From: Paludisphaera rhizosphaerae
GTDB taxonomy: Bacteria; Planctomycetota; Planctomycetia; Isosphaerales; Isosphaeraceae
NCBI RefSeq assembly: GCF_011065895.1
Contig: NZ_JAALCR010000002.1
Coordinates: forward strand, 124,001-188,000
Length of the DNA: 64,000 nt
Reading direction: 5' to 3'
Shown: positions 51,025 to 56,273 of the stretch, one piece after another
Position numbering within the stretch: position 1 is the stretch's first letter
Layout: each line of letters starts with the position of its first letter
Notes under the pieces: generated by a model
Told to the model about the DNA's origin: nothing
The model's input: the letters and a program-made list of their open reading frames with translations, nothing else
Databases searched by the model: none
Program-made: the position numbers and the translations under genes

Positions 51025-51843
51025 GTGGCGGGCGGAAGTGGGCGAGAACGTCGAGTGCATCGGTCGTACAAGCCGGCCGTCGAGGGGATCGAGGCGCGCC
51101 GCCTGCTATCTGGCGCCACCCTCGCCGCGACGTTGTCGGTCCCGACGACAGATCACCAGACTCTCCTCGACTCCGCATCATCGCCTTCCATTTACCCAGA
51201 CTCTCCGGTCTCCTCCGGTAACGCCTGGGACGCAGCCCTCCTCGACGCCCGGCTCGATGATTTTTTCTCCAGCCTCGGCACCGCGACCGAGGAACCCCAG
51301 GTCGTCTCGACGCTCGACCAGGAGGCGATGGCCTCGGGTCTTAACCAGCTCGACCGATATCTGACCTCGTCATGGAAGCGTGCAGGGGTATCCCCCCAGT
51401 CGTACGAGGACTCCTCGCAGGCGGTGTACATCACCCTCCTCCAGCAGCTTGGTCGGAGCCGGTTCGACGCCATGTTGAGCGACGTCGGCCGTTGGGGGAT
51501 CAAGGAGGTCTTCAGCAAGGAGACCGACGAGGGCCAGGACTTCTTCCGCGCCGTGGACATGGTCAAGAAGCGAGTTCAGCGGGAGCGGACGTATCAGCCG
51601 CTCGACGACGCCGCTTTCGCCGCGGCCGATCTGGAAACCCAGTCCCGACTCGACGCTCTTCGCGAGGTCATGGACCGGACGCTCACTCCCCGCGAGGCCA
51701 GCCTCATCCAGGAATCCCTGAAAGGGCTGACCCCCTCCGAGATCGCCCTCCAGTGGGGCGTCGCCCCCAAGACGGTCAGCAACGAGAAGACTCGCGTGCT
51801 CAACAAGCTTCGCGACGTCCTTCAGGGCCAGTTGGCGGACTGA
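51025..51843 (+). CDS. Sigma-like/HTH protein with LEPR-XLL-like N-terminus
   Basis: 272 residues from a GTG at 51025 with a perfect AAGGAGG seven bases upstream. Residues 18-30 (AVEGIEARRLLSG) resemble the LEPR-XLL motif found at the N-termini of large planctomycete surface proteins. The middle region (about 70-200) is helical with a sigma region 2-like character (SYEDSSQAVYITLLQQLG, FFRAVDMVKKRVQRER). Residues 220-268 are a sigma region 4/LuxR-like HTH: LTPREASLIQESLKGLTPSEIALQWGVAPKTVSNEKTRVLNKL. This pairing of a surface-protein motif with a transcriptional domain is unexpected. It is followed by a VWA lipoprotein gene. Function is inferred only. Confidence 0.75.
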   Translation: MAGGSGRERRVHRSYKPAVEGIEARRLLSGATLAATLSVPTTDHQTLLDSASSPSIYPDSPVSSGNAWDAALLDARLDDFFSSLGTATEEPQVVSTLDQEAMASGLNQLDRYLTSSWKRAGVSPQSYEDSSQAVYITLLQQLGRSRFDAMLSDVGRWGIKEVFSKETDEGQDFFRAVDMVKKRVQRERTYQPLDDAAFAAADLETQSRLDALREVMDRTLTPREASLIQESLKGLTPSEIALQWGVAPKTVSNEKTRVLNKLRDVLQGQLAD

Positions 51844-51992: not shown

Positions 51993-52799
51993 ATGCGGTC
52001 CGCGATTCCATCCTGCGTTCTCGCGCTTCTGGCTGCGTGTTCATTCGCGGCAGGCCAGGAAGGATCGTCGAAGCCCCCAGCCGATGCCGGGAAGAAGCTC
52101 GCGCCCGTCGCGCCCCCCTCCGATCGCCGGAAGGTCAAGGTCGACGAGAATCCCCGGGTCATGACGCCCGAGGAGATCGAGGCCCGCAAGAAAAGCCCAT
52201 TCCTCCGGCCGCCTGGTGCTCAGGATGACGAGCACTACGAACCCGAGGATCTTCGCGACCTGCCGCCGTGGAGTCACGCGAGTTTCTTCGGGATTTCAGC
52301 ACGCGGACGGTTCATCGTCTATGTGCTGGACCAATCAGGCAGCATGATCGACGACGACCGGATGGTTCGAGCCACCAGCGAGCTACGGCGGAGCGTGAAC
52401 GCGCTGCACAGCCCCCAGAAGTTCGAGGTCATCTTCTACAACGACCTCGCAACCACGATGCCCGGCGGGCCGACGCCCCGCGAGGCCGATCAGCGCACGA
52501 AGGAGCAGCTTCGGAACTGGCTCCATCTGATTGACCCTGACGGCGGCACCAGTCCGAAACGGGCCGTGCTCCAGGCACTGGGGATGCGGCCTGACGCCGT
52601 CTTCTTGCTCTCGGACGGCGATTTCCCGGAAGGAACCGTCGAGTCGATCGCCGCCGCCAACGGCCGCAAGGTGCCCATCCACTGCGTGGACCTGGCCGGC
52701 GGCCTGGCTGGCGACGCCCTCCAGAGGATCGCCCGTGAGAGTGGCGGACGATACGCCTCGCGCCCCGGGAGCCTGCACGACGTCGGCTCGGGGCGCTGA
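51993..52799 (+). CDS. VWA-domain lipoprotein
   Basis: 268 residues starting with a lipoprotein signal whose lipobox is LAAC near residue 16. A Pro/Lys-rich linker (about 25-90) precedes a VWA domain beginning FIVYVLDQSGSM (MIDAS D-x-S-x-S), with VFLLSDGDFPEG and a final GGRYASR. Such proteins bind partner proteins in a metal-dependent way. GAGGAA lies six bases before the ATG. It ends 16 bases from the convergent coiled-coil gene. Confidence 0.85.
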   Translation: MRSAIPSCVLALLAACSFAAGQEGSSKPPADAGKKLAPVAPPSDRRKVKVDENPRVMTPEEIEARKKSPFLRPPGAQDDEHYEPEDLRDLPPWSHASFFGISARGRFIVYVLDQSGSMIDDDRMVRATSELRRSVNALHSPQKFEVIFYNDLATTMPGGPTPREADQRTKEQLRNWLHLIDPDGGTSPKRAVLQALGMRPDAVFLLSDGDFPEGTVESIAAANGRKVPIHCVDLAGGLAGDALQRIARESGGRYASRPGSLHDVGSGR

Positions 52800-52815: not shown

Positions 52816-53868
52816 TCACTGAGTCGCCGAGACCGAGCCCATCGGGCTTCCTCGGATCGTCATCCCCTCGGGCAAAGGCCGGGCGGCCACGCTGAACCCG
52901 CGATCGTTCAATTCGTCGCGGAGTTGGCGGTAGAGCGCGAAGCTGTCCGGATAGACCCACATCGTCACGACGGCCCGTCCGGGACTCAGCCGGTTGAGGG
53001 CCCGCGAGTATTCCGAGATCGGGTTGCGGGTTGATTCATAGGTCTCTCCGCGGGACTCAGAGGTCGGGACGACTTCCCAACCCCGCAGGTCGAAGCGAAT
53101 GCTGTGACGCTCAATCAACTCCTCGATCCCCGACTGGGCCCGCCCGAGAACGTAGCTCAATTTGAACGAACCGACGGGACCGACCTGAGACGCCAGGATC
53201 CCCGTCCGCTCCGCCATCCTCAATCGAACCTGGGCATCAGACTTGGCCAGTTCCAGGAGACGTTCCAGATCGATGAAGCTGATCCGATTCCGGTGCAGCT
53301 CGAAGTGGAACTCCTCGGCGCGGGCCGGTCGGGCGACGGGGTTCTTGCTCAGGATCGAGGTCGCTTTCGGGAGCGGCAGGTTCCGAAGGTTGGCGACCTC
53401 GTTCGCCAGGTGGTCGCGCTCGGCCTTAAGGACTCCCCCCTTGGCCGAGACCCGGGCGATCTGCGTCGACGGATCACGAACGCGAAAGGCCAGCTTGCGC
53501 GCTCGGGCCGCGTCGAGCGCCGCCTGATTCGCGGAGGCTGCCAGCATCTGCTTCGCCTCGGCGGCTCGCGACTCCGCCAGGGCCCGATCTCGCGCGGCGG
53601 CGTCGCGCTCGGCTTCGGCCTTGGCGATCGCCTCGCGGTCCAGCGTCGGAGCGGGCGGAGGAGCAGCGGGCTCGGGCTCGGGTTCCTCCTCGATCTCGAT
53701 CACTTCGGGGACCGGGGCCGGAGAGGTCGCGGCGATGGCTGGAGCAGGCGAGGGAACGGGCGTATGGTCGGGCTCAGCGGGCCGAGGGCGGTTCACGAGG
53801 AAGGACAGGAGCAGCAGCCCGGCGAGGACGCTCGTGACCGTCAGCGCGTCTCGAAATCTGGAGGTCAT
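52816..53868 (-). CDS. Single-pass membrane protein with Pro-rich linker, coiled coil and C-terminal domain
   Basis: About 350 residues from the ATG at 53868, which overlaps the stop of the upstream gene by one base (TGATG); a GTG two codons earlier is an alternative. One transmembrane helix (about 10-26) is followed by a Pro/Glu-rich stretch (30-75), a coiled coil (77-165) and a C-terminal alpha/beta domain. That domain contains FHFELHRNRISFIDL near residue 190 and AVVTMWVYPDSFALYRQLRDELNDRGFSVAAR near 300. This C-terminal unit resembles two segments of the 801-residue neighbour. The function is unknown; translational coupling suggests the pair forms one complex in the envelope. Confidence 0.75.
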   Translation of the reverse strand: MTSRFRDALTVTSVLAGLLLLSFLVNRPRPAEPDHTPVPSPAPAIAATSPAPVPEVIEIEEEPEPEPAAPPPAPTLDREAIAKAEAERDAAARDRALAESRAAEAKQMLAASANQAALDAARARKLAFRVRDPSTQIARVSAKGGVLKAERDHLANEVANLRNLPLPKATSILSKNPVARPARAEEFHFELHRNRISFIDLERLLELAKSDAQVRLRMAERTGILASQVGPVGSFKLSYVLGRAQSGIEELIERHSIRFDLRGWEVVPTSESRGETYESTRNPISEYSRALNRLSPGRAVVTMWVYPDSFALYRQLRDELNDRGFSVAARPLPEGMTIRGSPMGSVSATQ

Positions 53869-56273
53869 CACCACACCCCCTGCTCGAGGAACCGAGGATT
53901 CTGAGCCCCGGCGACCTGGAGCGACATCGGCCAGTTCAGCCCCGAGAAAAGGATCTGCCGACGAGCTTCCCAGAAGTTCTGGGCGCCGTCCTCCTCCACC
54001 AGGAACTTGACCCGAGGCCTGGGACGGATGCCCGGATCGACCTCCGCTCGCTTTCGAGCCACGGCCTCCAGGTTGCGAACGAACAGATCCTCGTCGCGGC
54101 GAGTCCTCAACGCCTGGTTGGTAATCCGGTAGCCGCCGGGCTGAATCGTGAGGCCGTCCGTCCCGCAGGCGACGACGATCTCGAACGGGATCTCCACAGC
54201 CGTCTCCGGCTTCTCCTCGTCATTAGGGATCAGCGGCTTCATCTCAGGATCCGCGGAAGCCGAAGCTCCCGGCGCTCCCCCAGAACCGGCTCGACCGGAT
54301 TCGGAATCGGCGCCGATCATTAGACCCGGAGAAGGTTGCGAATTCGACGAGCCGAGCCCGATCGGCGAGCCCATTCCCGAGCCGAGGCCGGCGAGGCGCG
54401 GCATCGAAGTAACGCTCCGCGGGGGATTTCCCGAGGCGTTCGCCGGAGGCGTCATTCCACCGGCAGCGTTGCTTCGAGCCGATGAGCCACGGGCTCCTTC
54501 ACTGTTTTCCCCCGTCGCAGGTTGGGCGCTTCCTGCGGGCGGCCCGTTCGACGCTCCCCCGCCCCACATCAGCCCACCCATGGACTGAGGCGATTCCGTA
54601 CCGGAGCCGCCTGCCGGCGCGGGCTGGAGGTTATCGTCGAACGCCCCTGTCGTGGACTTCGGAGCTTCCAGTTGGTTTCCACTGCCCGATCGTCGTGCGA
54701 GCCCTTGCCCGGCCGTCGTGCCTGGACGCCTGGTTGACTCGCCAGCACCGGCGTTGGCAGGGCGACCTCCGTCAGCCCCACGTGCGATCCCACTCGGCGG
54801 AATTCCGGCTCCTTGCAGTCCGCCGGCGTCGCCTCTCCGCTGCAGGTTGAGGATCTCGTCGGCTAGTGTGCCGGGCTCATCGCCGTTCTCGGCAGGCCCT
54901 CGTTCCGAGGGGTTACGGCCCGTCCCATAGGGACCTCGCAGCCAATCGTCGCCCCCGATCGCACCAACGCCTCCACTGCCCGCCGGGCGGGAGCCGCTGC
55001 CTCCTCGAGTCGTTCCGCCGGCACCCATCGGGCCGCCTGGTGGGCCTTCCTGCTGGCCCTCGGCTCCCTGACGGCCGACCGCGCCGAGGCCTGGCCGGGA
55101 GGTCGGCCAGACGAAGTCGCCCGGCGATTCGGTTCCGGCATTCGATCCATTTCCGCCGGAAACGGGTTTGCCCCCTCGTCCTGCGTTGAAGGCCTGGGCG
55201 ATCGTCCGTGCGTCGTCGTTCCCGGGCCAGGAGAGGCCTTCGCCAGAGCCTGGCTTGGCCGTCCCTCCTGACGTCCTTGATCCTGTCGAGCCAGCGGGCG
55301 AGCCCGCGAGACCCGACGAAGGGACGGAGATCGACGGCGAGCCGTCCCAGGTGGCGAGGTCGTCGTAATTCGGGACGTGAATATCGAGATTCTGCTCGAC
55401 CAACTCGTAGCCGAAGGCGATTCCCAGCGGTTCCAGACGAGATCGGATCTCATAATAGGCGCGGACGCCGTCGGGCCGGACGAGGAAGACGAAATAGGGA
55501 ACCACGGGCGAGCCGTCCGGGCTTCCCGCCGTTTTGACCTTCAGCAGCTCTCGAGCGATCGCCACGACGACCGGGCTCGATCGCGGGGTCATGATCCCGG
55601 CGAGGTCCGTCATGTTGAACGTGGGGCCATTCGGCTTGATCGTCACGGCCCCGGACGTGCACTCGATGACGATCGGCCGCTTCCAGGTTCCGTTCTCGCC
55701 CTGGTAGGGAAGAACGGCGTAACTCCCCTCCCCCGGCGCCTTGGCGATCGCCGCTTTGAGGGCGTCGCGCTCCTGGACCAAAACGTCGCGCTGGGCGGCG
55801 AAGGCGTCGACTTCGCGATCCAGCCTGTTCGACTTCTGCTCAAGCTGAGCGATCTGCGTCTTGACGAGCATCTCGCGTCGTCGCCAGCCTTCCGATTCGG
55901 CGGTCGCCTTCTTTCGGGCTGCCTCCAGGCTGGCGGCTTCGCGGTCCAACCGTTGAGCCTCCGCGCGTTCGCGGGCGGTCGCCTCGGAGATCTGTGCCAG
56001 AGCCTTCGGCGTTGGATCTTCGGGGACCGGTTGCGGAGGGGACGGAGCGACGGTCGGCCGAGGCTTCTTGACGACCTTCGGCGGAGGTTGGGGGATTGGG
56101 GCGGGCTCGGCAGCCGGACTCGCATTGACGACCTCGATCGTCTGCGGTTTCCTGGCGTCCAGGAGCGACTGTCTGTGGATCGAGACGACCAGGTGCAGCG
56201 CTCCACCCAGGCTCGCCACAATCAGGGCGAGCATGGCGAGTTCCGCCTGGATCCTTCGCTTGCCGATCGCCAC
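53868..56273 (-). CDS. Single-pass membrane protein with Pro-rich linker, coiled coil, repeated domain and long Gly/Ser-rich spacer
   Basis: 801 residues from a GTG at 56273, with GGAGG upstream. A transmembrane helix (about 11-31) is followed by a Pro-rich region (50-90) and a coiled coil (95-180). Domain copy 1 (about 199-300) contains IVIECTSGAVTIKPNG and FVFLVRPDGVRAYYEIRSRL; copy 2 (about 696-790) contains IVVACGTDGLTIQPGG and VKFLVEEDGAQNFWEARRQI. A low-complexity Gly/Ser/Pro/Ala spacer (about 310-690) lies between them. The same domain type ends the downstream coupled protein. The architecture, TM plus Pro-rich plus coil, recalls TonB/TolA- or MotB-like envelope-spanning proteins, but no such family motif was seen. 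Confidence 0.75.
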   Translation of the reverse strand: MAIGKRRIQAELAMLALIVASLGGALHLVVSIHRQSLLDARKPQTIEVVNASPAAEPAPIPQPPPKVVKKPRPTVAPSPPQPVPEDPTPKALAQISEATARERAEAQRLDREAASLEAARKKATAESEGWRRREMLVKTQIAQLEQKSNRLDREVDAFAAQRDVLVQERDALKAAIAKAPGEGSYAVLPYQGENGTWKRPIVIECTSGAVTIKPNGPTFNMTDLAGIMTPRSSPVVVAIARELLKVKTAGSPDGSPVVPYFVFLVRPDGVRAYYEIRSRLEPLGIAFGYELVEQNLDIHVPNYDDLATWDGSPSISVPSSGLAGSPAGSTGSRTSGGTAKPGSGEGLSWPGNDDARTIAQAFNAGRGGKPVSGGNGSNAGTESPGDFVWPTSRPGLGAVGRQGAEGQQEGPPGGPMGAGGTTRGGSGSRPAGSGGVGAIGGDDWLRGPYGTGRNPSERGPAENGDEPGTLADEILNLQRRGDAGGLQGAGIPPSGIARGADGGRPANAGAGESTRRPGTTAGQGLARRSGSGNQLEAPKSTTGAFDDNLQPAPAGGSGTESPQSMGGLMWGGGASNGPPAGSAQPATGENSEGARGSSARSNAAGGMTPPANASGNPPRSVTSMPRLAGLGSGMGSPIGLGSSNSQPSPGLMIGADSESGRAGSGGAPGASASADPEMKPLIPNDEEKPETAVEIPFEIVVACGTDGLTIQPGGYRITNQALRTRRDEDLFVRNLEAVARKRAEVDPGIRPRPRVKFLVEEDGAQNFWEARRQILFSGLNWPMSLQVAGAQNPRFLEQGVW

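What the first reader, a model, noticed from the sequence alone, without database searches (positions are those of the whole stretch)
52816..56273. Coupled pair of membrane coiled-coil proteins apparently sharing a repeated, unnamed C-terminal domain
The 801- and 350-residue proteins overlap by one base and both have TM, Pro-rich linker and coiled coil. The larger one holds two copies of an alpha/beta unit (about residues 199-300 and 696-790), with IVIECTSGAVTIKP/IVVACGTDGLTIQP and FLVRPDG/FLVEEDG segments. The smaller one ends in a similar unit (VTMWVYPDSFALYRQL). I know of no named family for this unit; it could be the core of a planctomycete envelope complex.
Basis: partly seen in the sequence, partly recalled or inferred. 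Interest (0 to 1): 0.74.

Follow-up and report, generated by a model that had tools for sequence, protein, structure and literature searches.

The report
Planctomycete motor-type membrane protein pair
Two neighbouring envelope proteins look like the two moving arms of a proton-driven bacterial motor; in this bacterium's family the pair is kept although the motor's usual channel gene and proton-binding residue are gone.

Summary
In detail: two minus-strand genes overlap by one base (801 and 350 aa), each with an N-terminal TM helix, Pro-rich linker and coiled coil. The 801-aa protein (A) carries two copies of one alpha/beta unit (profile E 2e-14; same predicted fold). The smaller protein (B) ends in a related but expanded unit, linked to A's only through an intermediate.

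In the five other families sampled that hold the pair, a long-tailed MotA/TolQ/ExbB-type channel gene precedes it (15 of 15 loci; 35 of 39 in a second set). There B's TM helix has the Asp of ExbD/TolR/MotB (69 of 69 readable), while A has Ala (52 of 55). The nearest solved structures to A's second unit are ExbD/TolR periplasmic domains (Z about 7, modest). A and B are most likely paired transpore subunits of a planctomycete 5:2-type motor.

In the window's family (Isosphaeraceae) that channel was not found (0 of 37 genomes), B's Asp is replaced (often Arg/Lys), A has a conserved Glu before its helix, and a family-only channel gene lies elsewhere (36 of 37). Whether the pair is still powered there is unresolved. 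New variant of a known kind.

The parts
53868..56273 (-). gene A, 801 aa: TM, Pro-rich linker, coiled coil, unit 1, Gly/Ser/Ala/Pro-rich tether, unit 2
   Evidence: A directly before B in fetched loci; dN/dS 0.32-0.33 against two genus members, dS above 1
56181..56246 (-). TM helix of A (about residues 10-31), with Glu11 directly before the hydrophobic stretch
   Evidence: helix 3-40; Glu in 15 of 16 Isosphaeraceae rows (one gap), 0 of 20 other rows
56016..56141 (-). Pro-rich linker of A (about residues 45-86)
   Evidence: sequence, low pLDDT
55740..56015 (-). coiled-coil helix of A (residues 87-178)
55401..55685 (-). unit 1 of A (residues 197-291), alpha/beta unit homologous to unit 2
54213..55337 (-). 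375-residue low-complexity tether of A (residues 313-687; 90 Gly, 46 Ser, 45 Ala, 40 Pro)
53913..54197 (-). unit 2 of A (residues 693-787); nearest solved structures are ExbD and TolR periplasmic domains
52816..53868 (-). gene B, 350 aa: TM, Pro-rich linker, coiled coil, C-terminal domain
53794..53862 (-). TM helix of B (residues 3-25); the Asp conserved in other families aligns with Arg here
53383..53637 (-). coiled coil of B (residues 78-162)
52849..53316 (-). C-terminal domain of B (residues 185-340), expanded relative of the unit
53868..53868 (-). one-base stop/start overlap of A and B

Best explanation
A and B are the two non-identical transpore-type subunits (TolR/ExbD/MotB role) of a planctomycete proton-motor system found, in the genomes sampled, in the window's class. 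In most families a long-tailed MotA/TolQ/ExbB-type channel protein, A and B are encoded together. By analogy with 5:2 motors, the channel pentamer would sit in the inner membrane, the A and B helices would pass through it side by side, B's Asp would be the proton site, and the coiled coils and units would carry motion into the periplasm, with A's second unit on a long flexible tether able to reach the cell wall or outer membrane. In Isosphaeraceae (the window) the pair is kept under purifying selection but re-wired: the cognate channel gene is not found, B's Asp is replaced, A has a conserved Glu before its helix, and a family-only channel encoded elsewhere is the likeliest partner. Shown: gene order, co-inheritance, residue conservation, unit duplication, predicted folds. 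Inferred: heterodimer, stoichiometry, proton flow, outer-membrane reach, and that the family-only channel is the partner.
For: Channel gene (PF01618, E 9e-8 to 2e-13 in the four scanned) directly upstream of A in 15 of 15 non-Isosphaeraceae loci, and upstream of A in 35 of 39 further named loci with over 1.8 kb upstream (32 by six-frame search). Genome-wide: the 15 of 22 non-Isosphaeraceae relatives with B are exactly the 15 with this channel (380 bits or more); the other 7 lack both. In a phylum sample of 294 genomes, 45 of 45 non-Isosphaeraceae genomes with strong B also have it. B's TM motif DSFLDIVANIVGILIILIV: Asp in 69 of 69 readable sequences (68 by pattern, L065 by eye); A's LFPFLAVLICTMG: Ala 52, Thr 2 (L065 by eye), Asp 1 of 55. 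TM profiles of A and B pick out the A- and B-like genes beside a second channel family among 1,636 N-termini (A2: 7 of 7 at E 2e-6 or better; B2: 4 of 5 at about 5e-8 or better, one at 0.005). A unit 2 against PDB: ExbD 8p9r Z 7.7 (71 of 74 residues, 2.5 A), four more ExbD/TolR entries in the first seven; the hypothesis had been noted. Isosphaeraceae: this channel 0 of 37; own channel 36 of 37 and 0 of 22 elsewhere; no acidic residue in B's Asp column in 38 rows of two overlapping alignments; A Glu 15 of 16 against 0 of 20.
Against: No ExbD hit among the listed Pfam/NCBIfam matches for A, B or relatives (lists capped at 25). Direct profile comparison of the units with four canonical ExbD sequences finds nothing (E 0.15-0.38). 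Foldseek E-values are not significant (TolR 0.38, ExbD 0.61), Z below 8 is common for unrelated folds, and pantothenate kinase, uS11 and actin-like folds score close behind. B's domain has no clear structural match. Of the second set 4 of 39 loci lack the channel (L166, L167, L170, all Schlesneria; L195, where no A was called either), and L183 has it on the other strand; 12 further loci end too near to tell. One genome (G245) has the channel with only a weak B. 11 of 41 Isosphaeraceae B rows (the window and two truncated rows among them) hold a scattered acidic residue in or at the edge of the helix. The channel set is itself not resolved as one clade (p-AU 0.28 for one clade). No channel gene is beside the pair in the window's genus.
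Confidence: 0.68

Rival explanations
1. In Isosphaeraceae the pair is a decommissioned motor: it lost its channel and proton site and now acts as a static coiled-coil tether between inner membrane and wall or outer membrane.
For: Cognate channel in 0 of 37 genomes; B's Asp replaced by Arg/Lys/Gly/Ser/Thr/Trp in the rows aligned; genes intact, dN/dS 0.19-0.33.
Against: A has a conserved Glu just before its helix, and a family-only channel appears in 36 of 37 genomes, which suggests replacement rather than loss.
Confidence: 0.4
2. In Isosphaeraceae the pair is still powered, by the family-only channel (relocated and fast-evolving, or recruited), perhaps with A's Glu as ion site and a further small membrane partner.
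For: Complementary distribution of the two channels; a tree with both channel sets on one side of a branch is not rejected (p-AU 0.36); 16 of 16 cognate channels and 9 of 10 Isosphaeraceae channels end in Ala-Ala (alignment).
Against: In the free tree the Isosphaeraceae channel groups with other paralogues (98/97); it has its own membrane partner next to it (6 of 9 loci, and the own genome), not the pair; the Glu is not at the aligned Asp position.
Confidence: 0.38
3. The pair is an unrelated envelope coiled-coil complex that merely travels with a channel gene.
For: No sequence-level ExbD match; modest structural Z.
Against: Strict co-inheritance (45 of 45), ExbD-type Asp helix in B (69 of 69 readable), and the same three-part pattern in further paralogous loci.
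Confidence: 0.1
4. The trio is an antiphage system of Zorya type.
For: The channel profile's best PDB sequences are 8vvn and 8vvi (E 4e-6, named there only MotA/TolQ/ExbB; that they are Zorya proteins is recalled), and a channel member hits PADLOC ZorA2 (E 7e-9).
Against: No ZorB hit for the window's A and B or for A and B of L071; mostly single-copy, class-wide inheritance. ZorC-E were not searched for.
Confidence: 0.03

Closest known systems
ExbD/TolR (PF02472) with ExbB/TolQ
   Same: N-terminal TM helix with Asp (B outside Isosphaeraceae), C-terminal alpha/beta domain of similar predicted fold (A unit 2), adjacent MotA/ExbB-family channel gene outside Isosphaeraceae
   Different: no PF02472 match; two unlike partners, with rare exception only one with Asp; long coiled coils; unit duplicated in A with a long tether; window version lacks Asp and adjacent channel
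AglR-AglQ/AglS of Myxococcus (PMC9389320, passages read)
   Same: one channel-type protein with two MotB/TolR-like proteins
   Different: there AglQ and AglS are both described as having the conserved Asp; here A has Ala
[quoted passage not shown]
   Same: a tolQ-like gene with two unlike tolR-like partners is described for the PVC group
   Different: A and B have no vWA hit; the parts I read do not mention duplicated units, the Ala/Asp split or an Isosphaeraceae change
ZorA/ZorB of Zorya
   Same: long-tailed MotA-like channel subunit (weak PADLOC match)
   Different: no ZorB match in A or B; other Zorya genes not searched for

Membership tests
ExbD/TolR (PF02472) | Pfam/NCBIfam profile match | tested here: not met
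   none at E up to 1 for the window's A and B; none among listed hits for relatives
ExbD/TolR (PF02472) | Asp at the start of the single TM helix | tested here: not met
   window: Arg aligned; outside Isosphaeraceae B meets it, 69 of 69 readable
ExbD/TolR (PF02472) | periplasmic ExbD/TolR fold | tested here: inconclusive
   A unit 2: ExbD Z 7.7, TolR Z 7.0, Foldseek E 0.4-0.6; B no clear match
ExbD/TolR (PF02472) | cognate MotA/TolQ/ExbB channel gene | tested here: not met
   not beside the window pair; cognate channel 0 of 37 Isosphaeraceae genomes; met in 15 of 15 plus 35 of 39 other loci
5:2 ion-driven rotary motor | five channel subunits around two transpore helices | not testable with these tools
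   no complex prediction or structure available
TPH-vWA motor partners (PMC12204202) | vWA domain on the transpore protein | tested here: not met
   no VWA hit in P0001 or P0002
Zorya (ZorAB) | ZorB-type partner | tested here: not met
   no PADLOC ZorB hit for P0001, P0002 or the L071 relatives

The most novel reading that the evidence does not exclude
Isosphaeraceae have naturally re-engineered a proton motor: the proton site moved from B's Asp to a Glu in A, the old channel was swapped for (or evolved into) a family-only channel encoded elsewhere, and a further small membrane partner with an Ig-like domain joined. Together with the Ala/Asp split in other families, this would be a motor driven by one proton site per transpore heterodimer instead of two.
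Probability: 0.22. Interest if true: 0.85.

Novelty: new variant of a known kind. Interest (0 to 1): 0.62.

Why it matters
Known 5:2 motors are generally modelled with two transpore helices that each hold an Asp and take turns as the rotor moves (general knowledge). A system whose two partners are unlike, with nearly always only one Asp, inherited across a whole class, would test that alternating model directly. The Isosphaeraceae version offers a natural experiment in how such a motor is re-wired or retired. It also gives a testable identity to a gene pair without a domain name in a phylum with unusual envelopes.

Tried and rejected
Pfam, NCBIfam and PADLOC scans of A and B gave only weak, mostly coiled-coil matches. 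A profile of B against PDB sequences gave mostly coiled coils (best 60 of 246 shown). Foldseek found no significant match for either model; VIA gave nothing convincing for B. Canonical ExbD (only four sequences gathered) did not align to the units by profile. The idea that the helix of the Isosphaeraceae membrane partner (GEDSFVAVVVTKL) derives from B's helix was not supported (best E 1.5). Whether the Isosphaeraceae channel belongs with the cognate channels could not be settled. For P. limnophila essential genes (PMC10632474) and a planctomycete proteome (PMC8567305) a term search of the main text gave no passage on such genes beyond one general mention of 'biopolymer transport protein complexes'; supplements could not be read. 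Searches for prior description; of what I opened (section 8 and passages of PMC12204202, passages of PMC9389320 and PMC12505986, term searches of the two papers above; otherwise listings) only PMC12204202 describes heterologous tolR-like pairs. Mahajan et al. 2020b, cited in PMC8567305 for new planctomycete protein families, did not come up.

Method limits: genes in fetched loci were called with a home-made ORF script, which missed three channel genes later found by six-frame search and truncated some starts; the genome search scored only part of its candidates in large genomes, so absences there are not absolute. Named loci L139-L162 were taken as Isosphaeraceae and L163-L218 as others from titles, identity and contig lengths equal to those of classified genomes; most of L139-L162 are the same genomes as the unnamed Isosphaeraceae set, so those two sets are not independent. 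Rows dropped: L183 and L193 (start not readable) from the Asp count; 10 of 65 A sequences with unreadable N-terminus from the Ala count; 12 edge loci, and L171, L183, L187, L201, L214 with short upstream DNA (four of these five do show the channel upstream, L183 on the other strand), from the 39. A by-eye Glu count gives 27 of 27 distinct Isosphaeraceae A sequences (25 by script, L152 and L153 by eye), with L078, L142, L085, L146, L149 dropped as truncated or fragments.
Full report
OBSERVATION. The two ORFs are as described: 53868-56273 (-), 801 aa, and 52816-53868 (-), 350 aa, sharing one base. AlphaFold2 with alignments of 36 (A) and 42 (B) sequences gives for each a TM helix, a low-confidence Pro-rich stretch, a long helix and a globular part. 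In A the units lie at 197-291 and 693-787 with the same order of elements (three strands, two helices, strand, helix, strand), separated by a 375-residue Gly/Ser/Ala/Pro-rich tether. Profile comparison confirms duplication (E 2.4e-14), and 88 of 97 distinct A sequences have both units, the nine exceptions being fragments or a misread start.

NEIGHBOURHOOD. B is found in 51 of 59 and A in 50 of 59 relatives, a few of these being weak coil-only matches. In the 15 non-Isosphaeraceae loci with B, the gene directly upstream of A is one protein family with a MotA_ExbB domain (PF01618; four members scanned) and a long C-terminal tail. In named genomes (294 stretches; the best 80 kept and seen) the 80 titles are planctomycete taxa apart from one unresolved MAG ('bacterium'). 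Of 39 non-Isosphaeraceae loci there with over 1.8 kb upstream, 35 have the channel upstream of A on the same strand; four have none (L166, L167, L170, L195; in L195 no A was called); L183, with short flank, has it on the other strand; 12 loci end too near to tell. The family code f1 is identified as Isosphaeraceae because contigs of Paludisphaera, Singulisphaera and others have the same lengths as those of f1 genomes; the window's genus is probably Paludisphaera by the same token (inference).

CO-INHERITANCE. The 15 of 22 non-Isosphaeraceae relatives with B are exactly those with the cognate channel at 380 bits or more; the other seven lack both. In a phylum sample of 294 genomes, strong B (147 bits or more) occurs in 47, all in the window's class: two Isosphaeraceae and 45 others; all 45 others hold the channel (226 bits or more), and one genome (G245) has the channel with only a weak B. 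In the 37 Isosphaeraceae genomes the best match to the channel profile is about 117 bits, far from 380 (candidates only partly scored in large genomes), and six-frame search of 49 fetched Isosphaeraceae loci finds none at the pair (upstream length varies, and some loci repeat a genome).

RESIDUES. Outside Isosphaeraceae B's helix reads DSFLDIVANIVGILIILIV; the second Asp is present in 69 of 69 readable sequences (68 by pattern, L065 by eye) and sits where ExbD, TolR and MotB have their conserved Asp (role as stated in PMC9389320 and PMC12204202, passages and section read). A's helix reads LFPFLAVLICTMGALI, with Ala at that place in 52, Thr in 2 (L065 by eye) and Asp in 1 (L212) of 55 readable sequences. 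In Isosphaeraceae the Asp column of B is Arg 8, Gly 5, Lys 4, Trp, Ser, Thr, one gap in 21 rows, and Arg 8, Lys 3, Ser 3, Gly 2, Thr 1 in 17 rows of a second alignment that shares most genomes; none is acidic. Singulisphaera keeps much of the motif with Gly in place of Asp. The window has an Asp one residue further on, where two genus members have Gln. Eleven of 41 Isosphaeraceae B rows have a scattered acidic residue in or at the edge of the helix core, the window and two truncated rows among them. Isosphaeraceae A has Glu just before the hydrophobic stretch in 15 of 16 rows (one gap) against 0 of 20 other rows. Both genes are under purifying selection within the genus (dN/dS 0.32-0.33 for A, with dS above 1, and 0.19-0.25 for B, two comparisons each).

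FOLD. The ExbD/TolR hypothesis was written down before any fold search. A's model against PDB by VIA-align: top match ExbD periplasmic domain 8p9r, Z 7.7, 71 of 74 residues, 2.5 A, with 8vgd, 5by4 (TolR), 8vgc and 8pek also in the first seven, all on unit 2. The other two of the seven are pantothenate kinase, and uS11 and actin-like folds follow closely. Foldseek alone is not significant, and Z under 8 is often chance, so the fold evidence is supportive, not proof. B has no clear match.

A WIDER SUPERFAMILY. The same pattern recurs: a channel with an N-terminal CxxC (zinc-ribbon-like) motif with A2 (LFPFLSILACVIG, one unit; found by pattern in 7 of 8 loci) and B2 (DSLLDTMTNVVGIL; 5 of 8), and a short channel with A3 and B3 (2 of 3 each by pattern). 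TM profiles of A and B pick out A2 and B2 among 1,636 N-termini, and A2 aligns with B2 over 242 columns, coiled coil included (E 3.6e-10), so A-type and B-type proteins are probably ancient paralogues. In a tree of 46 channels the 40 of these systems lie on one side of a branch from six canonical ExbB-type proteins (100/100); the cognate channels are not resolved as one clade, nor is one clade rejected (p-AU 0.28). Isosphaeraceae carry their own channel (36 of 37 genomes, 0 of 22 others) and a small membrane partner with one N-terminal TM helix, further hydrophobic stretches and, in the one scanned, an Ig-like domain (36 of 37). In the tree this channel groups with the paralogues (98/97), but a tree with it and the cognate channels together is not rejected (p-AU 0.36).

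MECHANISM. Most likely A and B form the transpore part of a proton-driven machine whose coiled coils and units carry motion into the periplasm; A's tethered second unit would act like the reach of TonB/TolA. With Asp only in B, one proton site per pair is the simplest reading. In Isosphaeraceae the machine is re-wired or retired; the evidence does not decide. Shown: duplication, order, co-inheritance, residues, predicted folds. Inferred: complex, stoichiometry, proton use, outer-membrane contact.

KNOWN AND NEW. Heterologous tolR-like pairs beside tolQ-like genes are described for the PVC group (PMC12204202, section 8 and passages read) and AglQ/AglS for Myxococcus (PMC9389320, passages read). 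I found no description of this pair, the Ala/Asp split, the duplicated tethered unit or the Isosphaeraceae change in the searches named (open-licence library only, mostly listings seen). It is therefore a new variant of a known kind; the window proteins themselves fail tested defining features of PF02472 and are not filed as members.

Noticed in passing
own genome G000:C7:246215-248368 (locus L219), outside the window: Isosphaeraceae-only long-tailed MotA/ExbB-type gene followed by a small membrane protein with an invariant GEDSFVAVVVTKLTGALLF helix; each in 36 of 37 family genomes, 0 of 22 others.
   Followed up: partly
L229-L235, L237: Second paralogous system: channel with N-terminal CxxC (zinc-ribbon-like) motif, plus A2 and, in five of eight loci, B2.
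   Followed up: partly
L221, L226, L238: Third paralogous system: about 290-aa channel with A3 and B3 types nearby.
   Followed up: partly
L243, L244, L245: Family f3, where 6 of 6 sampled genomes lack B, has a short channel gene near a TM-coil-vWA protein (MWMLDVFCCALGCVTLL helix), resembling published TPH-vWA motor partners (VWA hit for L245).
   Followed up: no
window 51993-52799 (+): Secreted-looking vWA protein ending 16 bases from B and convergent with it; its family is present in 13 of the 26 Isosphaeraceae stretches examined, window included, of interest given published vWA motor transducers.
   Followed up: no
window 51025-51843 (+): Regulator with a C-terminal GerE/sigma-region-4-like domain and no recognised N-terminal domain; its family occurs in four of the stretches examined.
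   Followed up: no
L212, gene A: Only readable A sequence with Asp (FPFLDVLVCTMG) at the place where others have Ala or Thr; possible ancestral state or reversion.
   Followed up: no
L070 channel gene: Channel beside an Asp-bearing B has a degraded-looking pore motif (VVGLLGSALLTAM, ALDPTILAV); a second related channel (L236) lies elsewhere in that genome.
   Followed up: no
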